Position numbers and translations under genes: made by a program
The notes under the pieces: model-generated
What the model was told of the DNA's origin: nothing
The model's database searches: none
The model's input: the letters and a program-made list of their open reading frames with translations, nothing else
Source: a virus
Length of the DNA stretch: 43,469 nucleotides
Direction: 5' to 3' (one strand)
IMG/VR virus record: IMGVR_UViG_3300044732_000656
Span: 1 to 43,469 of that record
Shown here: positions 22,529 through 37,527 of the stretch, piece after piece
Numbering within the stretch: position 1 is the first letter of the stretch
Layout of the letters: every line of letters begins with the position of its first letter

Positions 22529-23194
22529 TTGAAGAATCTCAAAACATATGCCGATTTTCTAAAGGAGAATGTGATGGCCATACAAAGGACATCTATTGAT
22601 AATCCAGAAGGAACTGTAACTCCTATAATAGGAGAAGAGGATGTTGATGAGTACATGTTCTTTCAAAATCTGAAAATGATTCAAGAATGCGTAAATTCTA
22701 TGCTTTCAATGGATCCAAAACGAGTTAATGCAATTTTAAGAGATGGTCACGCCTGGGCAACTGATCATATTTCTACGTCCAAAGACGATATTGAAGAGGT
22801 TGCTGGATTTCTGAAAGGTCGTGTTACAGAAAATCTCGACGAAGCAAAAATATCAAGCTTTAATCGAATTTTATCAATGTCACCTGAATGGTGGATTGCT
22901 TGGAAACAGGAGAATAAGAATAAAGGGTATGAATTCAAAAAGGATGCATTCTCTAAGACTTATGAAGTAAGTAAAGATGGAAAAATTCTTTTTGTTTTTG
23001 ATTATGGAAGGAATAAGATCTTCACTAACCAAGATCCTAGCACTTACATTCTAGATTCTCCTCTTACACAATCTGAATTGAATGATATTACGAAGAAGGC
23101 TGATAAAATGTATCAATCAAGCACAGATTCTAATGATTCTGAATCTGATCAAGATGAGGACGCTACGAAAAAATCAACTAGCGAAGAAGAATGA
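22529..23194 (+). CDS. Tagged protein with TTG start and several cut sites
   Basis: A 221-residue protein. The TTG at 22529 is chosen because the codons right after it spell KNLKTYADFLKEN, the conserved tag; the first downstream ATG (22573) would remove it. A second site, NLDEAK, lies near residue 103. After it comes a Trp-rich domain (SMSPEWWIAWKQENKNKGYE, then FVFDYGRNKIFTNQDP). The C-terminus is acidic and Ser-rich. Two domains may be released by the maturation protease. Function unknown. The stop overlaps the next ATG. Confidence 0.75.
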   Translation: MKNLKTYADFLKENVMAIQRTSIDNPEGTVTPIIGEEDVDEYMFFQNLKMIQECVNSMLSMDPKRVNAILRDGHAWATDHISTSKDDIEEVAGFLKGRVTENLDEAKISSFNRILSMSPEWWIAWKQENKNKGYEFKKDAFSKTYEVSKDGKILFVFDYGRNKIFTNQDPSTYILDSPLTQSELNDITKKADKMYQSSTDSNDSESDQDEDATKKSTSEEE

Positions 23195-26971: not shown

Positions 26972-28585
26972 ATGGCTGGATTTGTAAATCGCGAAGAAAC
27001 TTATGCTGGACGCCCTACGGCCGAATCTCGAAATTTCGTATCTAAGGCGTTGAAATCTTTATCATCGTTTGGGATGATGTATGATGATATGGTTCTTAGA
27101 AATTCTAAGGCTATTGGTATCAACGAGGATCGATTTGGTTGGAGGCTCGATCCTCGAAATTCAGCCGGCGGAGAATACGACGATTACGCTCTTTTTGCTA
27201 ATTTGTCAATGACCGATATCAATCTTCGTAAATCTATCTCGATTTTTGATAAATCATATCCAAAGAAAAGAGAGGATCTTCGTAAATTTGCTATTCAAGA
27301 TGAAATAGAAGAGATTCTAGACACTTTATGTGATGAATGTGTTGTTTATGATGATAAGAACTACTTTTGTTCTCCCCTCGCCTTTGATGATGAAACTCTA
27401 GAACCAGGAACTCTAGAAGCTATCAAAATTGCTCTTGAAACTAACTTCAAGAGAGTCTATCAATACTTCGGTTTCAATAATGATATTGCTGCCTGGTCCT
27501 ATTTCCGAAAGTGGTTAGTTGATGGATATTTAGCTTTCGAAATTATCTACAACAAAGAACAAGATAGAATTATCGGTTTCAAAGAGCTAGATCCAATCAC
27601 TCTAGAACCCGGTCTCGATAAAGAAGGTAAGAAGATCTGGAAGCAATTTAAGAGCCAACCCGGGAAAGAAAGAGTTCTTTACGATTCTCAGCTCATATAC
27701 ATCTCATATGCTAACGTTAATACCTCATCAAGAGTGTCTTACGTTGAGCGACTAGTTAGATCATTTAATTTGCTCCGTATCATGGAGCATTCTCGAGTAA
27801 TTTGGGCTACTGTGAATGCCTCGTTCAAGACTAAATTCGTAATTCCGGTCGGAGGTAAATCTAAAACACGGGCTAGGCAATCTCTTGGTGTTATTATGCA
27901 AAATTACCGAGAGCAAATTGACTTTGATACAGAATCTGGCGAATTGAAAGTTAACGGAAAGGCTATGATGCCTTTCAACAAAGAATATTGGCTACCTTCC
28001 GGAGAAGCCGGAGAACCGACTATTGAAACTATCGGAAATGATGGGCCGGATCTTTCTGACACTGAGGCTCTTAAGTACTTTAGAGAAAAACTAATTAAGG
28101 TTTCTAAGATTCCTCTGTCGAGATTCGATATGGAATCTCCTCCTTCATGGGAAATGAATGCCGAAGGAATGACTCGTGACGAAATTAAATTTGGTCGATT
28201 CGTAACTCGACTTCGTTCAGTTTTTCAGGAGATTCTAGTTAAACCTTTATGGATTCAGATGTGTTTAGATTTCCCTCAATTGAAGGAAGATGATGCTTTC
28301 AAATCTCAAATAGGGGTTAAGTACAATAAGTACAATATATTTGAAGAAATGAAAGAAATTGAAATCCTTCAAAAGCGATTAGATTTCGTGACTTCTATGA
28401 AAGATGGATTGGTAGAAACCGATGCAAATATGAACGAAATCAAGTACTTTGCTTCTGAATTCCTCATTCAACGATTCCTTGGATTATCTTCTGAGGATCT
28501 TCGATTGAATAAGAAATTGAAGATCTCTGAAGACGAAGAAAAATTAGCTGCCGCTAAAAAAGCATCTGAAATAACCGGCATGTAA
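26972..28585 (+). CDS. 20: Portal protein (gp20-like)
   Basis: A 537-residue portal forming the dodecameric ring through which DNA enters and leaves the head. It matches T4 gp20 (524 residues) in layout: an early Asp-rich segment (RNSAGGEYDDYALFANLSMT), a middle wing with YFRKWLVDGYLAFEIIYN, the conserved RVSYVERLVRSFNLLRIMEH helix and the PIPLSRF-like stretch (KVSKIPLSRFDMES). The C-terminal helical crown is Lys/Glu-rich. It stands immediately before the prohead protease, as in T4. Confidence 0.93.
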   Translation: MAGFVNREETYAGRPTAESRNFVSKALKSLSSFGMMYDDMVLRNSKAIGINEDRFGWRLDPRNSAGGEYDDYALFANLSMTDINLRKSISIFDKSYPKKREDLRKFAIQDEIEEILDTLCDECVVYDDKNYFCSPLAFDDETLEPGTLEAIKIALETNFKRVYQYFGFNNDIAAWSYFRKWLVDGYLAFEIIYNKEQDRIIGFKELDPITLEPGLDKEGKKIWKQFKSQPGKERVLYDSQLIYISYANVNTSSRVSYVERLVRSFNLLRIMEHSRVIWATVNASFKTKFVIPVGGKSKTRARQSLGVIMQNYREQIDFDTESGELKVNGKAMMPFNKEYWLPSGEAGEPTIETIGNDGPDLSDTEALKYFREKLIKVSKIPLSRFDMESPPSWEMNAEGMTRDEIKFGRFVTRLRSVFQEILVKPLWIQMCLDFPQLKEDDAFKSQIGVKYNKYNIFEEMKEIEILQKRLDFVTSMKDGLVETDANMNEIKYFASEFLIQRFLGLSSEDLRLNKKLKISEDEEKLAAAKKASEITGM

Positions 28586-28632: not shown

Positions 28633-30492
28633 ATGAATAATAAGTATCTTCTCGTAGTTGAGAGATCGGAAAGCCAACTCGCCGTCGCAAGAACAAACGA
28701 TAAGTATGTTCTTGAGGGAGTTTTCACCGAGATTGGAGTTAAAAACAACAATCAAAGGGTATACGATGAAAAAGAAGTAATCCCTCACGTAAACGAACTA
28801 CAAAAGCTTTGCGCAGGTAATAAACTTCTTGGAGAATTAGACCATCCTAAATCATTCGACATTTCTTTGAAGAACGCTTCTCATGTGATAGAAGAACTTC
28901 ATTACGATAAGGAGAAGAAACAGGTTATTGGACGAATTCGTCTTCTAAATACCGAAGCAGGTAAAAACGCTATGGCGTTGGTTGATGCAGGCGTCCCTCT
29001 ACATATTTCTAGTAGAGCCGCTGGAATCGTAGAAAGTAACGGTCACGTAAAAATCAAAAAGATGTTCACATATGACCTTGTTGCTACTCCTGGATTCTCA
29101 AACGCCGAGCTAAAAAGAGTTAATGAAAGTTTTGGATTAGCTGAAGATGACAATCTTCAGCTTTTCGAGGTTCCTTGGACCATCAAAGATACAGAATCGA
29201 ATAACGAAACCGAAATAAAAGAAAACAAAGAAATGGACAATTCCAAATACATTTCAATCGAGGATTTCAATCAATATACTAAACTCGTCAAGAACGAATT
29301 TGAGGCTATGAAATCAAAGATTCAAGAATCCGCTAAAAATCCTAATGAAGGAAAGAATGTTAACGAAGGTTTGATCAAATACACTGAAGCGGTCGCAAAG
29401 CAAGTTAATGCTTTACAGGAATCAATCGAAGGATTGATTTCTCATAATGATTACATCGTTGAAAATCTCGAACGAGTAAAAGATTACGCTGAGTTAGTTG
29501 GAGAGAAATCTAATCTAGGTATCAATTACTCAGAGAAGCTCGCAGAATCCGTTGATCATCTAATCGAATACACTAAGGTGGTTGCTGAAAAGACAGATCA
29601 ATCAATCGAATACACCAAGATGATTGCTGAAAAGACAGATCAATCAATCGAATATGGAAAATATGTAGCTAACGAATCGTCTAATCGTTGGAATTATCAA
29701 GAACATCTCAACGAGCAACTTGACAAAGTAATTTCTCATAATGATTATATAGTTGAAGGTGTTGATTCAGTAATTAAGTACATCGAATATGGTGTTAAAG
29801 AAACTGAAAAGCTTCAATCATTCGTTGATCATACGGTTAAAACCATCAATGAAAACGGGTTTGTAAATAGCGAAGAAAAGACTAATACCAAAGAGGTTAA
29901 ATTAGTTGAAAATCAGACCAAAGGAGTTACTAAGTCTATTAGCGAATCCATTAACGTCGATTCGGATGATGAATTCAAGAAAAACATTACGACTCAATTA
30001 AATGCTATTCTTGAATCCGCTAAAACTGAAAAAGAACAAACTATCAACAAAACTTATCATTTCTTGAATTTCTTAGGTGAAAGTCGAAGAAATCAATTCG
30101 ATTCTCTTACTCCAGAAATGAAGCAAACTGTAGTAGATAAGTTCTCTAGTACTTCTTATTTTGGATCTGCTGATGCAGAAAGAATTTTCGAATCGGTATT
30201 CATTCAACCAGTTGCTAAGCTAGATTGGTTGGCTAATATGCCTTCTAAATACGTTTCTTCATGGAACTCTCTTAACGAAAATCAGAAAACCGCAATCAAA
30301 GCTCAGGCTTCGATTCGTCGCCTAGAAACTCAATATCAAATCGATGATTTCTGGGCAAATCGCGAGCTTCGAACGGTTAAGATAGAAAACGAAAATCTAG
30401 AAAGACCTATCAACGAATCATCTGCTTACGAAACGAACAGTGAATATATGGATGCCGTTCGTGAAGGTTTCCGACGTCGATTCAAAAGATAA
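28633..30492 (+). CDS. 21: Prohead maturation protease fused to a coiled-coil scaffold
   Basis: Residues 1-165 match T4 gp21: GVFTEIGVKNNNQRVYD, then LLGELDHP with likely catalytic His71, and VPLHISSRAAG with likely nucleophile Ser127. T4 gp21 ends after about 210 residues, but here ~450 more follow. These include an extended coiled coil with 14-residue repeats (SIEYTKMIAEKTDQ) and duplicated ISHNDYIVE blocks, then a helical C-terminal domain ending in a basic helix (AVREGFRRRFKR). That tail resembles capsid-binding ends of scaffolds, so this gene may encode both protease and core (gp22-like) functions. It should cut the tagged proteins after [LIV]-x-E. Confidence 0.88.
   Translation: MNNKYLLVVERSESQLAVARTNDKYVLEGVFTEIGVKNNNQRVYDEKEVIPHVNELQKLCAGNKLLGELDHPKSFDISLKNASHVIEELHYDKEKKQVIGRIRLLNTEAGKNAMALVDAGVPLHISSRAAGIVESNGHVKIKKMFTYDLVATPGFSNAELKRVNESFGLAEDDNLQLFEVPWTIKDTESNNETEIKENKEMDNSKYISIEDFNQYTKLVKNEFEAMKSKIQESAKNPNEGKNVNEGLIKYTEAVAKQVNALQESIEGLISHNDYIVENLERVKDYAELVGEKSNLGINYSEKLAESVDHLIEYTKVVAEKTDQSIEYTKMIAEKTDQSIEYGKYVANESSNRWNYQEHLNEQLDKVISHNDYIVEGVDSVIKYIEYGVKETEKLQSFVDHTVKTINENGFVNSEEKTNTKEVKLVENQTKGVTKSISESINVDSDDEFKKNITTQLNAILESAKTEKEQTINKTYHFLNFLGESRRNQFDSLTPEMKQTVVDKFSSTSYFGSADAERIFESVFIQPVAKLDWLANMPSKYVSSWNSLNENQKTAIKAQASIRRLETQYQIDDFWANRELRTVKIENENLERPINESSAYETNSEYMDAVREGFRRRFKR
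29562..29645 (+). repeat. Two tandem 42-base repeats in the protease-scaffold gene
   Basis: Units 29562-29603 and 29604-29645 differ at only a few bases and encode SIEYTK[V/M][V/I]AEKTDQ; a third degenerate unit follows. Fourteen residues equals two heptads, so repeat number would set coiled-coil length. The nine-residue block ISHNDYIVE also occurs twice in the same gene, at about 29437 and 29731. Confidence 0.85.
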
Positions 30493-31337: not shown

Positions 31338-32957
31338 ATGTACTTGTTAAATGAACAAGAAATTTTCGGTAAATGGGCTCCTATTCTGGAGTCCGAAGTT
31401 GGAGTAACCGATCGTAATAGAGTCGAGTGGATGTCTAAGTACTGCCACTATCATGAACTTTACGAGAATAACTCCTTCGCTCAACTCGGTGCTGTTAATG
31501 GCATGGGTGGAACTCGTTTCCCTGATAGTCCTGGAACCCTTCAAGGTTTCGACACCCAGACGACAGGATCTGGTGATAAGGCTCACACTCTTCTTCCTCT
31601 CGCGATGCAGGTTGCTGCTCAGACCATTGGTCTTGATCTAGTTCCTGTTGTTCCGATGCCTGGACCTATGGGTGTTCTAACTTACCTTGATTTCGTATAC
31701 GCTGGTGGTAAGACTAGTGGAACCGGTGCTGATCTTCCTTTGTTGATCAAATTAAATTATGGTGCCAACCCAATCCCCAGTTACACAGTCGGCGGTTCAG
31801 GTGCTTCGGCTAATACTACCTTCCATGTGGTTGGTTCTTCTCGTCTTGATGGAATGCCTATCTTTAAAGTAACTACTACTTCATCTTCTCCGGTTCTTAC
31901 TGCATCATTAACAGGTTTAACTGTTGCTGGTGCTTCAGTTGGTACCGGTTATACCGTAGAGTTAGTTAAGGCGCTCGAAGATCACATCACTGGATTCTCC
32001 GGTGCTGCTCTGGCTAATGATGTCTATGCCGATACTGCTTCTGCATCAGTGAACGATCCTTACGGCCGTTCACAAGGTGAAGGCACCACGGATAACATCA
32101 TGAACTTGAGCCTCTTCAACAAATCGGTTGAAGCTAAGACTTTCCAAGTTGCTGCTGCAGTGACTCGTGAACAAGTACAAGACTTGAAGCAATTCGGCGT
32201 CGATGCCGTATCTCAGGTTGAATCAGTACTTATCAACGAAGTAACTCAGTCAATCAACAAGAACATTCTTAACCGTCTGTTCGCTCTTGGAGAAAGAAAC
32301 CATGCTGCTGTTATCACGACTCAAGGAACTAACTTCTTCGTTAACCTTGGTTCAACTGCAGTAACGGTCGCTGCCTCCGCTACACAGAACACTGCTACCG
32401 CTTTTGGTAACTACATCATCACTACGGCTCTCCGTGGTGCAACTATGCAGCCTACCGAAGTAACTAACTCTGCTTCTGAGAATCTCCACACTCGTCAGCG
32501 TAAGATTATGTCAAAGATCCTCGCGATCGCTAACCTAATCGCTATCCGCGGTCGTCGTGGTCCTGCTACATTCGTAGTAACTAATGGTCAAGTTTGCTCA
32601 GCTCTACAAGATGTTGCTGGTTTCATACCCGCACCGATGGCTAACACCATCAATCAAATGAGCGGATCACTTTATCCGATTGGTACTCTCGCAGGTCTTG
32701 CAGTGTACAATGATCCTAACATGTCTTGGCAGGATACTCGTTTCTGCGTAGGTCGTAAGGGTGATGGTAACTCTCCTGGTCTTGTGTTCATGCCTTATCT
32801 CATGGCTGAATCCGTACAGACTATCGCTGAAGGTACTATGGCTCCTAAAGTTGCGGTTAAATCTCGTTACGCTTTGGTTGAAGCTGGTTTCCATCCCGAA
32901 ACTATGTACCTCACATCTGGAGTTTACATCCACTCAAACTTCGGTTCTCTCGTTTAA
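31338..32957 (+). CDS. 23: Major capsid protein (gp23-like)
   Basis: A 539-residue capsid subunit. The N-terminus EIFGKWAPILES parallels ELLNKWKPLLEG of T4 gp23, and VEAKTFQVAAAVTREQVQDL parallels the gp23 stretch IEAKSRQLKAAYSIELAQDL. The E-loop and HK97-fold P-domain order is consistent. The N-terminal propeptide should be removed by the gp21-like protease; ILE before Ser19 or LYE before Asn44 are candidate cuts. Residues 43-85 are copied in the small protein at 4294-4539. Arg codons are almost all CGT/CGC, whereas neighbours favour CGA/AGA, suggesting selection for very high expression. A strong terminator follows. Confidence 0.93.
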   Translation: MYLLNEQEIFGKWAPILESEVGVTDRNRVEWMSKYCHYHELYENNSFAQLGAVNGMGGTRFPDSPGTLQGFDTQTTGSGDKAHTLLPLAMQVAAQTIGLDLVPVVPMPGPMGVLTYLDFVYAGGKTSGTGADLPLLIKLNYGANPIPSYTVGGSGASANTTFHVVGSSRLDGMPIFKVTTTSSSPVLTASLTGLTVAGASVGTGYTVELVKALEDHITGFSGAALANDVYADTASASVNDPYGRSQGEGTTDNIMNLSLFNKSVEAKTFQVAAAVTREQVQDLKQFGVDAVSQVESVLINEVTQSINKNILNRLFALGERNHAAVITTQGTNFFVNLGSTAVTVAASATQNTATAFGNYIITTALRGATMQPTEVTNSASENLHTRQRKIMSKILAIANLIAIRGRRGPATFVVTNGQVCSALQDVAGFIPAPMANTINQMSGSLYPIGTLAGLAVYNDPNMSWQDTRFCVGRKGDGNSPGLVFMPYLMAESVQTIAEGTMAPKVAVKSRYALVEAGFHPETMYLTSGVYIHSNFGSLV

Positions 32958-33051: not shown

Positions 33052-33570
33052 ATGAAGCTCATAGATCTATCAACATACTCGTATTTAAGAGACGAATTGA
33101 ACGAATACGTCATTCTTTGTAATCAATACCGATATCAACCTACGCCTGAGGATTTTGATGATTGTGTTAAATTTCTTCTTCTTTATCAATCCGGCACATC
33201 TACATTAACTGAATCGAATCTCGCATCAAAACTATATGAAGAATTTTCTTCTTCTATAACAGAAACTTCGTACGATCCTGAAAAGGATTGGGATGCTGTA
33301 ACCGGTTTGGTTGGTGGTGTAGCTAAAGGCGCCGCGGCCTTATTGGCCGGAGGCGTTGCGTTGAGCGTTCTAGGAGCTTATAAAGTAGGAGACTGGATCA
33401 AACATCTTTGGAAAAAAGGGAAAGTTATCAAAGCGGTTAAGGCTGAAATCGATGCGGAAATGAAAAAAATCGATGATTATGCCGAACTAAATAAGCTTCT
33501 TTCTAAAAGAGCTGAGCTAGAAGGAGAGGTTGATTGGAAGTCTGAACTTCCTAGTATATCCAGAATATGA
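33052..33570 (+). CDS. Hypothetical protein with Gly/Ala-rich membrane-active-like segment
   Basis: A 172-residue protein. Residues 80-110 hold a Gly/Ala/Val stretch (VTGLVGGVAKGAAALLAGGV, then ALSVLGAYKVGDW) flanked by basic residues. It could insert in a membrane or form a glycine-zipper helix. An upstream LTES sequence at about residue 55 fits the gp21 cleavage rule, so the hydrophobic part may be exposed by head maturation and act during DNA ejection; this is inference. Preceded by a late promoter. No known family recognised. Confidence 0.7.
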   Translation: MKLIDLSTYSYLRDELNEYVILCNQYRYQPTPEDFDDCVKFLLLYQSGTSTLTESNLASKLYEEFSSSITETSYDPEKDWDAVTGLVGGVAKGAAALLAGGVALSVLGAYKVGDWIKHLWKKGKVIKAVKAEIDAEMKKIDDYAELNKLLSKRAELEGEVDWKSELPSISRI

Positions 33571-33589
33571 TCAAAATAATAGACCTCGT

Positions 33590-35341
33590 ATGAATTCGTT
33601 TAGACCATCAATTAAAACTGCATTAGATTATGCAATTCTAGAAGAATATACAAGAATCAAGATTCTTCAAGAGTATCAACATGCAGTGAATGAGATTGAA
33701 TTATTGAATCTTTTCCTAGAAGGAATTTCTGATGAATATGAAATAGATGCAGAGAAAGATATTACTTTGAATGATCTTAAAAAATCGATTGATGAATCTG
33801 AGCATTCCGACGAGATAAAGAGTAATTTCTTTTACTCTTTGGTTTTTGAAGAAGTCTCTACCGACAAAGTCAAAGATAAGGTTAGAAAGATAGCTCAGGT
33901 TAGAAAAAAGATTAGAGCAGAAATCCAAGACCTCGAAAAGAATAAATCCGAATTACCTCCAGAAAAAAAGACTAAGAAGATGGAGATAAATTCTGAGATA
34001 TTCTCTAAGAAGGCTGAATCTGGAGATTTAATGATTCAATCTAAAGAGATAAGAGGGAAGGATCCACAGAAGGAGAAGAAAAGAACGTCGAAGTGGAAAA
34101 AAGCTTCCAGTTTGGCAAAGGAAATTGTTTCTGTTAATACGAAAATATCAGATCTGAATAAAAAGCTCAAAGATGTAAAAGAGGCGGATGATGAAAAGAC
34201 TAAAGATGAAATCAAATCTGAAATAGATGATCTAAAGAGCAAAAGAGTAGATCTACAGAGTGAATTACGATCAACCATCACCGGAATAAAGAAGAAAGAG
34301 GATTCACAGAAACCGGAAGATAAAAAGGAAGAACCGACAAAAGATCCTGCAGAAGATCCAGAAGAACCAGAAGAACCAGAAGAACCGACAGAAGATCCTT
34401 CAGAAGATCCAGAAGACACAGAGGAGCCTTCAGAAGAACCGACAAAAGATCCAGAAGAACCAGAAGACACAGAGGAGCCAGAAGACAAAAAAGAAGAACC
34501 TGAAGACGTTGAAGATTCTGATGTAAAGAAAGAGGAAATTGAGAAATTGAATAAAGCGATAGATGATCTTCGTAATAAAATAGACAAATCTCAAGGCATA
34601 TGGGATGATCAATTAAGTAATCTTCGAACACTAACCGATGAATTAGCTAATATGGATTCCCTGAAGGAGGTTGTCAGAATAGAGAGATTGAAAGGGATGG
34701 CTCAATTTAATAATAGATTACTTTCTATTATAGAAAACCCGGAACAGAAGAAAGAGATAAAAGATAAAGAAGCTGCGCTTAAAGCAGCCGCAACTAAATT
34801 TCAGAAGACTTTAGATACCGCAGAGAAAGAGGCTGATAAGAAAAATGAAGATAACGAAGGATATCAAAAAGCAAAATCTTCAGCGATCAAAGCCGAGGAT
34901 AAAATAGAGAAAGAAAAACAAGATGATGTTAATTACTCTTTAGGTGAAGATCCTGGAGATAAATCTACTGAACCGAAATCAACCGATTCAGAAGATTCAA
35001 CCGATACTAAATCGGAGCCTGCTGAAACCTCCGCAGTTACTAAATCAAAAAGTCCGGAAGAAAAAGAAGAGGAATCTGTAGACATTAAAATCGAAAATCT
35101 AACCAAGAAATTGGAAGACGCGCAAAAGAATATTGAGATCAAAAAAGAAAAAGGAGAAGACACTAAATCAATTGAAGATAACGTTGAGGCTATCAAAAAA
35201 GGATTAGATGATCTAAAAAAGGATAAATCTGAAATTGGTGAATCTACAAACGATACTGATGCTAGAATATGGGCTCTTGAATGGACGGTAGAAGATCTTA
35301 TCTACCGAACAAACAATCAATTATACTCTTTGAATGATTGA
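33590..35341 (+). CDS. Long acidic coiled-coil protein (possible head core or scaffold)
   Basis: About 583 residues from the ATG at 33590 (MNSFRPSIKT); the TTG at 33530 would overlap the previous gene by 40 bases. Helical at the N-terminus, then coiled coils (KKIRAEIQDLEKNKSELPPE), then a run of imperfect EEPxDPE repeats at about residues 245-310, then further coiled coils, and a short C-terminal domain (ARIWALEWTVEDLIYRTNNQ). The strongly acidic, helical composition and position after the capsid gene fit a core or scaffold role, which the protease C-terminus could share. No enzymatic motif. Confidence 0.7.
   Translation: MNSFRPSIKTALDYAILEEYTRIKILQEYQHAVNEIELLNLFLEGISDEYEIDAEKDITLNDLKKSIDESEHSDEIKSNFFYSLVFEEVSTDKVKDKVRKIAQVRKKIRAEIQDLEKNKSELPPEKKTKKMEINSEIFSKKAESGDLMIQSKEIRGKDPQKEKKRTSKWKKASSLAKEIVSVNTKISDLNKKLKDVKEADDEKTKDEIKSEIDDLKSKRVDLQSELRSTITGIKKKEDSQKPEDKKEEPTKDPAEDPEEPEEPEEPTEDPSEDPEDTEEPSEEPTKDPEEPEDTEEPEDKKEEPEDVEDSDVKKEEIEKLNKAIDDLRNKIDKSQGIWDDQLSNLRTLTDELANMDSLKEVVRIERLKGMAQFNNRLLSIIENPEQKKEIKDKEAALKAAATKFQKTLDTAEKEADKKNEDNEGYQKAKSSAIKAEDKIEKEKQDDVNYSLGEDPGDKSTEPKSTDSEDSTDTKSEPAETSAVTKSKSPEEKEEESVDIKIENLTKKLEDAQKNIEIKKEKGEDTKSIEDNVEAIKKGLDDLKKDKSEIGESTNDTDARIWALEWTVEDLIYRTNNQLYSLND
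34330..34510 (+). repeat. Imperfect GAAGAACCA-type repeats (EEP/DPE)
   Basis: Short units of GAAGAACCAGAAGA type encode runs of Glu-Glu-Pro and Glu-Asp-Pro. This low-complexity stretch probably forms an extended acidic spacer. It also creates a long spurious antisense reading frame (34036-34587). Confidence 0.8.
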
Positions 35342-35825
35342 AATACGTCGACAAAAAAGAGGAAGAGCAAGAACTCGTTTTGAGATCTTGCTTTCTTCGC
35401 TTAAACCCAGATATCGGCGAGTGCTTCTAGACAATCCTATCATAGAAAGAAATTCTCGAGATGATAGGTTTTTGCAATGTCTATTCTTGATAGAAGATTC
35501 ACGAATATCAGTTTCTCATCTTAGACGTCCACATATAAACAGAAAAGAAAAGAAAATACTTTCTTACTTTGATCTTCGACGATCTCTGAAGTATATCAAT
35601 TGGGAATGTGCTTATTGTAAAATCGTCATAAAATCAGAGATACATAATTACAAACCAGAGAATTTCACTTGCAAGAAGTGCTTTGATTATTATGTCCGAA
35701 ATTCAAAAATCATCAATCAACGATTGATTGATGAATCTCTTCGATTCACAGACCATTTGAAACGATCAATCAAAGAAGAACAAACTAAGTTCCTTAAATA
35801 TATCAAAAGAAATGATGAATCTTAA
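35334..35825 (+). CDS. Basic zinc-finger protein
   Basis: A 163-residue basic protein. CAYC near residues 92-95 and CKKC near residues 113-116 form a four-Cys zinc site about 20 residues apart. The N-terminus is Arg-rich (RRQKRGRARTRFEI, then PRYRRVLLD), suggesting nucleic-acid binding. The ATG overlaps the end of the acidic coiled-coil gene and the stop overlaps the ATP-grasp gene, so all three are probably co-translated. Family unknown. Confidence 0.75.
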   Translation: MIEIRRQKRGRARTRFEILLSSLKPRYRRVLLDNPIIERNSRDDRFLQCLFLIEDSRISVSHLRRPHINRKEKKILSYFDLRRSLKYINWECAYCKIVIKSEIHNYKPENFTCKKCFDYYVRNSKIINQRLIDESLRFTDHLKRSIKEEQTKFLKYIKRNDES

Positions 35826-37527
35826 ATACTTTCATGACTTTGTTAATGAAGCAAAAGAATCAACAAAGCGAAAGGAAAAAATTAAAGTTGTTCTTCTCTC
35901 CAACGTCAGTGAAGAGTCACATACCGTTCCAGCAATGGAGGCGGCATTTACAAAAAGAGGTATCTCGTTTAGAATTATTGATATAAACACGTGTAATCTA
36001 ATCTCTACATCAAATGGATCAGGTGATCTTATGATCAGCGATTCTAAAAGCAAGTCGTTCAAGATAAATTCTGATAATACGGCAATTCTAACTCGTCGAG
36101 GTGTTGTTAGATCAACTTTCACTAGAGACATTATATCTAAATTAGAAGATAATAACTTCTTTGTAGTCAATACTCTTGAATCGATACTGGCGTGTGAAAA
36201 CAAATATGTCACATCAAAGATTCTGATGGATGCAGGGATTCCAGTTCCAAAAATGGCAATCATTGAAGGCGAAGAATCGATTGAGAGTGCAATCAAACAA
36301 ATAGGAGGACGGTTTCCGGTAGTCCTGAAAATGCTATCTGGATCACATGGGATTGGAGTTTCTATTATTGAATCGGTTGCATCTCTAAAGTCAGTCCTTC
36401 AGACATTTTGGAAGATTGATCCAAAAATCGAAGTTCTTATTCAAGAAAAGATCGATTCCGAATATGATCTTCGTATTCATGTGCTAACAAAAAGATTCAA
36501 TTCACCTACGCCTTCGGATACTGATTCTGTTCTTCTAGGATATATGAGAAGAAACCGAATCAAGAAGGATTTTCGAACTAATTATTCATTAGGAGGAACT
36601 GTAGAAAAAACAAAGGTTACTCCGGAACAACAAAGAATTTCGATTGATGCCGCTAAAGCAGTAGGTTGCAATTGGTGTGGAGTAGATTTGATTGTTGATA
36701 AGAAGACAGGTAAGAATTATGTACTAGAAGTCAATTCATCTCCAGGAACTCAAGGTTTGAAGAAGGCCACTGGAGTAGATGTAATTGCCGATATTGTAGA
36801 TTTCATAGAAGATAAACAAAATTGGATTCGTTCTCGAAGACATGTCGGATTCCGCGAAATGATTCAGATTCCAGGAATCGGTGAAATTGTAGCTAAATTT
36901 GATACCGGTAACGGTGCAATGTCTTGTTCGATGACTTATGATGAAATGGAAATAGATCATAAAAATAAACAAGTAAAATGGAAGATAGGAGACCGAGAAT
37001 TCTCTAACAAGATTATTGATTATTCTAACGCAGAGGTCGGAGATGACGTTCACGAAAGGCCAATAATTGAAATCGATATCATGTTCGCCGGTAAAACTTA
37101 CAGAAAGGTTCATGTTTCTCTTGTTGATAGAAAGGATAAAAGTACTAAATTCTTAGTGAATCGAAATTTTATGGAAAGAATAGGATGTTCAGTTAATCCA
37201 ATGAAGACTTTTGTAGTAACTTCGGCCCCGGATGGATACTCTGCCGGAGATGCTAAAGGAAAACCTCATTTAGGAATCATATTTGAATCTACCAAAGATT
37301 CTATTAAAGGTGGCAAAGGCGATAAAAAATCAGATAATGACTTCGATCCTAACGAGTTAGAAATCGGATCTATGATTGAATTAGAGCACACAAAGAATAA
37401 AATCTCGGCTAAAGAGATTGCTAGAGATCATCTAACCGAAGATCCGAAATACTATTCTAAATTGATTAAATCTGGTCTAGTAGATGAACCAGAAGCTCTA
37501 AAAAGAGCCAAAGAATTGGGATGGTAA
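35812..37527 (+). CDS. Tagged RimK-like ATP-grasp ligase fused to a retropepsin-like domain
   Basis: A 571-residue protein in four parts. Residues 1-14 are the capsid-targeting tag (MMNLKYFHDFVNEA; an ATG one codon later is equally good). Residues ~25-335 are an ATP-grasp domain of the RimK type: FPVVLKMLSGSHGIGV nucleotide loop, IQEKIDSEYDLRIHVL, and the metal site LEVNSSPGTQGL. Residues ~345-470 resemble the RimB / 'ATP-dependent zinc protease' family (GFREMIQIPGIG, AKFDTGNGAMS with Asp364, LVNRNFMERIG). The last ~55 residues carry EHT...AKEIARDHLTEDPKYY, probably DUF5661. RimK adds glutamates to ribosomal protein S6. The tag suggests that this enzyme is packaged and injected, or acts in the head. 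Confidence 0.85.
   Translation: MMNLKYFHDFVNEAKESTKRKEKIKVVLLSNVSEESHTVPAMEAAFTKRGISFRIIDINTCNLISTSNGSGDLMISDSKSKSFKINSDNTAILTRRGVVRSTFTRDIISKLEDNNFFVVNTLESILACENKYVTSKILMDAGIPVPKMAIIEGEESIESAIKQIGGRFPVVLKMLSGSHGIGVSIIESVASLKSVLQTFWKIDPKIEVLIQEKIDSEYDLRIHVLTKRFNSPTPSDTDSVLLGYMRRNRIKKDFRTNYSLGGTVEKTKVTPEQQRISIDAAKAVGCNWCGVDLIVDKKTGKNYVLEVNSSPGTQGLKKATGVDVIADIVDFIEDKQNWIRSRRHVGFREMIQIPGIGEIVAKFDTGNGAMSCSMTYDEMEIDHKNKQVKWKIGDREFSNKIIDYSNAEVGDDVHERPIIEIDIMFAGKTYRKVHVSLVDRKDKSTKFLVNRNFMERIGCSVNPMKTFVVTSAPDGYSAGDAKGKPHLGIIFESTKDSIKGGKGDKKSDNDFDPNELEIGSMIELEHTKNKISAKEIARDHLTEDPKYYSKLIKSGLVDEPEALKRAKELGW

What the first reader, a model, noticed from the sequence alone, without database searches (positions are those of the whole stretch)
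35812..37527. RimK-like ligase plus retropepsin-like domain carrying a packaging tag
The protein combines the tag, an ATP-grasp domain with RimK-type motifs, a RimB-like DTG aspartic-protease domain and an EHT...DHL tail. In bacteria RimK glutamylates ribosomal protein S6, and RimB-like proteins are its partners. A packaged fusion could modify host ribosomes at the moment of infection, or modify capsid or cargo proteins. I know of no described phage effector of this design.
Basis: partly seen in the sequence, partly recalled or inferred. Interest (0 to 1): 0.8.

Follow-up and report, generated by a model that had tools for sequence, protein, structure and literature searches.

The report
Capsid-tagged phage RimK–RimB fusion enzyme
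A very large T4-like phage encodes an enzyme that joins a glutamate-adding module to a glutamate-chain-cutting module behind an address tag for the inside of its own head, and hundreds of other, mostly marine, phages carry the same tagged enzyme, so they probably inject it to alter a host protein (perhaps the ribosome) as infection starts.

Summary
ORF 35812-37527 (571 aa) has an N-terminal capsid-targeting-type tag, a RimK-family ATP-grasp domain with all ATP/metal ligands, a RimB-type retropepsin domain (FDTGN) and a DUF5661 tail. Tag, ligase and protease are conserved together in hundreds of viral contigs (480 confirmed stretches, truncated list). In 27 aligned members the ATP-grasp ligands and catalytic Asp are invariant. 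Three residues matching poly-glutamate contacts of the RimB-like protease RloA are conserved (two invariant). A T4-gp21-type processing site follows the tag in most members. The homologue in Yersinia phage YerA41 is annotated 'structural protein' and carries YerA41's own N-terminal motif, shared with other particle proteins. DUF5661 occurs only in this copy. Prior art: Monier et al. 2008 already reported marine-phage RimK with C-terminal DUF785 (now RimB) and proposed S6 modification, so the fusion is not new. The conserved packaging tag, the assignment of DUF785 to the 2020-2025 RimB/Rlo poly-Glu retropepsins, and a split form with two tagged genes were not found described. Best reading: a virion-packaged, injected RimK-RimB enzyme setting poly-glutamylation of a host protein, S6 the leading but unproven target.

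The parts
35812..37527 (+). Whole gene: tag + RimK ATP-grasp + RimB-like retropepsin + DUF5661 (571 aa)
   Evidence: ORF and translation; domains; relatives; AF2 model pLDDT 78.3
35812..35856 (+). N-terminal capsid-targeting-type tag MMNLKYFHDFVNEAK, predicted prohead-protease cleavage VNE|A after residue 13
   Evidence: Pattern shared with other window proteins and with nearly all relatives; low-confidence residues 1-20 in the model; T4 CTS and gp21 L/I-x-E rule from PMC9026906
35881..36807 (+). RimK-family pre-ATP-grasp + ATP-grasp domain (about aa 24-332); K131, K173, R221, R247, R255, N257, D292, E306, N308 invariant in 27 sequences
   Evidence: PF08443/PF18030; TIGR00768; alignment; Foldseek RimK 7qys TMt 0.89
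36841..37221 (+). RimB/Rlo-type retropepsin domain (aa 344-470), catalytic FDTGN at aa 363-367; K362/R416/R440 match poly-Glu-contacting K46/R114/R137 of RloA
   Evidence: PF05618; PDB profile hits 9g59, 9g58, 2pma; conservation; RloA residues from PMC12239564
37324..37524 (+). DUF5661 tail (aa 505-571), accessory to this copy
   Evidence: PF18905 8.7e-8; absent from relatives; similar stretches in LR756500 (65.5% id), LR756501/3, S-SRM01, VPs20
35334..35825 (+). Upstream 163-aa putative zinc-ribbon protein, 14-nt overlap with the fusion gene; same neighbour in 15 loci of the window clade
   Evidence: function unknown
28633..30492 (+). gp21-type prohead protease (Peptidase_S77), the enzyme expected to clip the tag
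   Evidence: PF03420 E=5.1e-11
31338..32957 (+). gp23-type major capsid protein; nearest named records LR756500 (462 kb) and Lak phages
   Evidence: PF07068
37521..37943 (+). Next gene downstream, with a longer form of the same tag (MINIPLFEDFVNRLNEA)

Best explanation
The protein is a bifunctional RimK-RimB type enzyme ('RimKB') sorted into the phage head. Step 1 (inferred; strong pattern support): the N-terminal tag binds it into the prohead core during assembly, and the gp21-type protease clips after VNE, leaving the mature enzyme in the capsid. Step 2 (inferred by analogy with T4 Alt and the internal proteins): it enters the host with the DNA. Step 3 (catalytic residues shown, activity inferred): the ATP-grasp domain ligates glutamate to a C-terminal carboxylate and builds poly-alpha-glutamate, while the retropepsin domain trims the chain and stimulates the ligase, so one molecule sets a defined chain length. 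Step 4 (least certain): the first target is a host protein, most likely ribosomal protein S6, so that translation is retuned before phage genes are expressed. Rough probabilities: RimK-type ligase plus poly-Glu protease 0.85; packaged in virions 0.8; acts in the host after injection 0.65; target is S6 0.4. The overall confidence below is for steps 1-3 with a host protein as target, S6 not required.
For: Domains and folds. All catalytic residues invariant across 27 divergent relatives. Poly-Glu-contacting residues retained: K362 at 90% or more, R416 and R440 invariant. At least 480 viral stretches encode relatives, and nearly all of the 80 kept matches span both domains to about residue 471. 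Tag with a gp21-type site conserved at the N-terminus and nowhere inside. Window encodes gp20, gp21 and gp23. YerA41_066 is annotated 'structural protein' in a phage whose particles were analysed by LC-MS/MS and carries an LLNKFEAADE N-terminus like other particle proteins 059, 205c, 208c and 209c. Split form in L039: a tagged RimK with a degraded retropepsin next to a second tagged gene with an intact FDTGN retropepsin. Biochemistry of RimB and of the bacterial RimBK hybrid: PMC11957791.
Against: No experiment on any phage member. The bacterial RimBK hybrid cleaved poly-Glu-RpsF but showed no glutamylation of RpsF (PMC11957791), so a fusion may have another substrate. The S6-specific NCBIfam cut-off is not met. 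YerA41's virion table (Table S2) could not be read here; 'structural protein' is the GenBank wording. The YerA41 motif was noticed partly by looking at particle proteins, so its match with that label is partly circular. Tag function is inferred from T4. In the marine clade few other proteins carry the tag (Mosig: one clear case, the fusion itself). The host of the window phage is unknown.
Confidence: 0.6

Rival explanations
1. It acts during assembly: it is taken into the prohead and glutamylates, or trims Glu chains on, phage head or core proteins, with no role in the host.
For: The tag brings it into the prohead; in the window clade the gene lies in the head module behind gp23 and an E-rich 603-aa protein; RimB can cleave internal poly-Glu (PMC11957791).
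Against: In the marine clade the gene sits in the regA-gp43 replication cluster, not the head module. The window's E-rich protein has no run of four or more Glu. RloA authors argue that encoded acidic stretches are not the natural substrates (PMC12239564). ATP is needed for ligation and its supply in a closed head is doubtful (inference).
Confidence: 0.15
2. It is injected but targets something other than S6: another translation or defence protein, or free glutamate turned into poly-alpha-glutamate. (A sub-case of the best explanation, differing in its last step.)
For: S6-specific cut-off not met; the bacterial RimBK hybrid did not glutamylate RpsF; RimB stimulates free poly-Glu synthesis by RimK (PMC11957791); T4 internal protein IPI is an anti-restriction factor and IPIII is needed in some hosts (PMC9391042).
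Against: No specific alternative target is indicated by gene context; the closest solved fold is S6-modifying RimK.
Confidence: 0.3
3. It is an ordinary auxiliary gene expressed during infection, and the N-terminal 'tag' is not a packaging signal in most relatives.
For: Cyanophage S-RIM8 and S-RIM12 carry an untagged RimK without protease domain; in Mosig few other proteins are tagged.
Against: The tag is conserved with its cleavage site across divergent clades, is shared by 13 or more window proteins, and the YerA41 homologue is annotated as particle protein with that phage's own motif.
Confidence: 0.15

Closest known systems
Putative marine phage RimK with C-terminal DUF785 (Monier et al. 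2008, PMC2530865)
   Same: Same domain order (RimK then DUF785 = PF05618), same neighbourhood next to regA, more than a hundred marine contigs with RimK (several with DUF785), S6 modification proposed
   Different: No packaging tag or injection found mentioned; DUF785 function was then unknown; freshwater/huge-phage clade, YerA41 and the split form not covered
Bacterial RimBK hybrid (Desulfotalea psychrophila DP2392; PMC11957791) and separate RimB + RimK of Pseudomonas
   Same: Domains for the same two activities, DTG catalytic motif
   Different: RimB is N-terminal to RimK in the bacterial hybrid; no capsid tag
RloA retropepsins of Pseudomonas aeruginosa (PMC12239564; NCBIfam retropep_RloA2)
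   Same: Retropepsin fold, K46/R114/R137 equivalents
   Different: Secreted, separate from the ligase, no phage context
T4 Alt and internal proteins IPI-III
   Same: N-terminal capsid-targeting sequence cleaved by gp21 after L/I-x-E, injection into the host
   Different: Different activity (ADP-ribosylation, anti-restriction)
Cyanophage S-RIM8/S-RIM12 RimK
   Same: Phage-encoded RimK-family ligase
   Different: No tag, no protease domain, separate branch in the tree

Membership tests
RimK-family alpha-L-glutamate ligase | TIGR00768 above curated cut-off and PF08443 | tested here: met
   159.5 vs 143.4 bits; PF08443 122.5 vs 21; all 27 members match TIGR00768 at E<=0.001
RimK-family alpha-L-glutamate ligase | ATP-grasp lysines and metal ligands (D, E, N) | tested here: met
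   K131, K173, D292, E306, N308 invariant in 27
Ribosomal protein S6--L-glutamate ligase (RimK sensu stricto) | NF007764 equivalog cut-off 331 bits | tested here: not met
   94 bits
Ribosomal protein S6--L-glutamate ligase (RimK sensu stricto) | Glutamylation of S6 C-terminus | not testable with these tools
   needs enzyme assay
RimB/Rlo retropepsin (PF05618) | Pfam gathering score 27 | tested here: inconclusive
   window copy 21.4 (below); Mosig 28.0, YerA41 29.0, L033 36.9, L039 second gene 30.2 (above)
RimB/Rlo retropepsin (PF05618) | DTG catalytic Asp and poly-Glu contact residues | tested here: met
   D364, G366 invariant, T365 in 26 of 27 (S in L030); K362 at 90% or more, R416 and R440 invariant
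T4-type capsid-targeted internal protein | Short N-terminal CTS with gp21-type site and gp21 homologue in the same phage | tested here: met
   VNE|A in window; sites in relatives; Peptidase_S77 at 28633-30492
T4-type capsid-targeted internal protein | Present in purified virions | tested here: inconclusive
   Only for YerA41 homologue by GenBank annotation and the phage's LC-MS/MS study; table not readable here
T4-type capsid-targeted internal protein | Ejected into host | not testable with these tools
   needs experiment

The most novel reading that the evidence does not exclude
A widespread class of phages packages and injects a self-contained writer-eraser of protein poly-glutamylation that reprograms host ribosomes (S6) before the first phage gene is read, and at least two phage groups with unrelated packaging tags have each put their own tag on it.
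Probability: 0.3. Interest if true: 0.85.

Novelty: new variant of a known kind. Interest (0 to 1): 0.62.

Why it matters
Phage RimK-DUF785 proteins have been on record since 2008 with no known role. The conserved packaging tag says where to look: in the virion, acting at the moment of injection. If right, it adds poly-glutamylation to the short list of injected phage protein modifications and makes a marine-phage mystery testable with existing isolates (Mosig, YerA41).

Tried and rejected
A T4-type late promoter (TATAAATA) near the gene: 2 matches in the window, fewer than expected, neither ahead of the gene. The idea that ligase-then-protease order is phage-only: the genome scan found such fusions only in short, mostly phage-like MAG contigs, but the 2008 paper reports the same order in Haloarchaea, so it was dropped. 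Poly-Glu runs or tails in window proteins as substrates: no run of four or more Glu found; one tagged protein (22529-23194) ends SEEE. DUF5661 as part of the functional unit: absent from relatives. Host S6 C-termini: S6 genes were located in five MAGs, but these are doubtful hosts and were not used. A literature search for DUF5661 found nothing.

Full report
WHAT IS THERE. The window is a 43,469-base virus record with T4-type head genes: gp20 portal (26972-28585), gp21-type prohead protease (28633-30492) and gp23 capsid protein (31338-32957). The capsid protein is closest to a 462-kb uncultured phage (53%) and to Lak phages (40%), and close relatives of the window sit on contigs up to 294 kb, so it is probably a fragment of a very large T4-like phage. 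The ORF at 35812-37527 overlaps the preceding gene by 14 nt.

DOMAINS. Residues 1-14, MMNLKYFHDFVNEA, match the tag that begins at least 12 other window proteins, with a longer variant at 37521. Residues about 24-332 are a RimK-family ATP-grasp ligase: PF08443 2e-35; TIGR00768 159.5 bits against a cut-off of 143.4. The AlphaFold2 model built on 27 sequences (mean pLDDT 78) matches solved RimK structures with TM 0.89, including the RimK-RpsF complex entry. Residues 344-470 are a RimB/Rlo-type retropepsin: weak in this copy (PF05618 2.5e-4) but clear by profile against PDB entries 9g59, 9g58 and 2pma. The tail is DUF5661.

CATALYTIC RESIDUES. In 27 aligned sequences (relatives 33-74% identical to the window protein), K131, K173, R221, R247, R255, N257, D292, E306 and N308 are invariant, as are D364, G366 and N367 of the FDTGN motif; T365 is Ser in one. 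The RloA paper (PMC12239564) names K46, R114 and R137 as pseudosymmetric poly-glutamate contacts conserved in RimB. In the 9g58 alignment residues 26, 94 and 117 fit these numbers with a constant offset of 20 and align with phage K362, R416 and R440; the last two are invariant. The offset mapping is my inference. It suggests that poly-Glu specificity is kept.

THE TAG. Of 38 distinct N-termini among relatives, 27 carry the strict tag with an [LIVM]xE[AGS] site, against 27 of 346 other ORFs of the same loci (many of them visibly tagged proteins) and 0 of 835 internal windows. Most remaining members carry looser forms. T4's capsid-targeting sequence is about 10 residues and is cut by gp21 after L/I-x-E (PMC9026906). 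The Melnitz phages have a tagged RimK without the protease domain; cyanophage RimKs have neither tag nor protease and branch apart.

VIRION EVIDENCE. YerA41_066 and its GN1 twin are annotated 'structural protein'. YerA41 particles were analysed by LC-MS/MS, with 63 phage proteins reported (PMC7354516). YerA41_066 lacks the T4-like tag but starts with MNTLNQSPARRLLNKFEAADE, resembling the [ILM]NxKFE motif of 059, 205c, 208c and 209c, all annotated 'structural protein'; the motif is rare elsewhere. I first saw most of these in the particle list, so this is suggestive, not an independent test. The supplementary table could not be opened.

SPLIT FORM. In L039 the RimK gene (tag MNYYNKGYMPLNES) has a decayed protease domain (FDSDK), and a second gene about 240 bases downstream encodes a tagged intact FDTGN retropepsin fused to a GNAT-like domain. 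Keeping the protease by a second tagged gene argues that both activities are needed in the same place.

SPREAD. 480 viral stretches encode relatives (list truncated). Two neighbourhoods dominate: the window clade (gp23 ... 163-aa putative zinc-ribbon gene - fusion - gp44) and the marine clade (gp44 ... regA - fusion - DNA polymerase). In bacterial and archaeal genomes the fusion appeared only on five short MAG contigs, of which L100 and L101 are plainly phage; cellular hits were RimK alone. In a quick tree all fusions plus Melnitz form one starred group, but long branches make it provisional.

WHAT WAS KNOWN. Monier et al. 2008 (PMC2530865) reported phage-like marine RimK, several with C-terminal DUF785, next to regA, and proposed modification of S6 by analogy with the T7 kinase. 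RimB was shown in 2020-2025 to be a poly-Glu retropepsin, and a bacterial RimBK hybrid in the reverse order is proteolytically active but did not glutamylate RpsF (PMC7343187, PMC11957791). I found no paper on the tag or on packaging of this protein, within an open-access library only.

VERDICT. The best reading is a packaged, injected RimK-RimB enzyme. Domain chemistry is well supported, packaging is supported by pattern and one annotated homologue, and the S6 target remains a hypothesis.

Noticed in passing
window 3193, 3974, 19066, 21522, 22178, 22529, 23191, 23814, 24717, 25024, 25380, 30789: A dozen further window proteins, mostly small and without Pfam match where tested, start with the same tag; they form a candidate set of injected proteins, clustered at 21.5-25.7 kb.
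   Followed up: partly
L091-L093 (YerA41 record 23860, 140082, 142959, 143442 and 29211): YerA41 shows its own N-terminal motif [ILM]NxKFE(A/S) on several proteins annotated 'structural protein': a possible second type of phage packaging tag.
   Followed up: partly
L039 5962-8922: Split form: tagged RimK with dead retropepsin followed by a tagged intact retropepsin fused to a GNAT-like domain.
   Followed up: partly
L098 (minus strand 683, 3914, 4608): Several ORFs share a longer N-terminus KKFSEFI(T/A)EGMWGSALRRSN, which looks like an extended tag.
   Followed up: no
window 35334-35825: 163-aa protein with a putative four-Cys zinc ribbon, conserved directly upstream of the fusion in the window clade.
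   Followed up: partly
window 37324-37524; LR756500, LR756501, S-SRM01, VPs20: DUF5661 tail recurs in other phage records, once inside a DUF2213 protein; it looks like a mobile C-terminal module.
   Followed up: partly
window 33530-35341: 603-aa Glu/Lys-rich low-complexity protein behind gp23, length-variable in relatives (825 aa in L004); possibly a scaffold or core protein.
   Followed up: no
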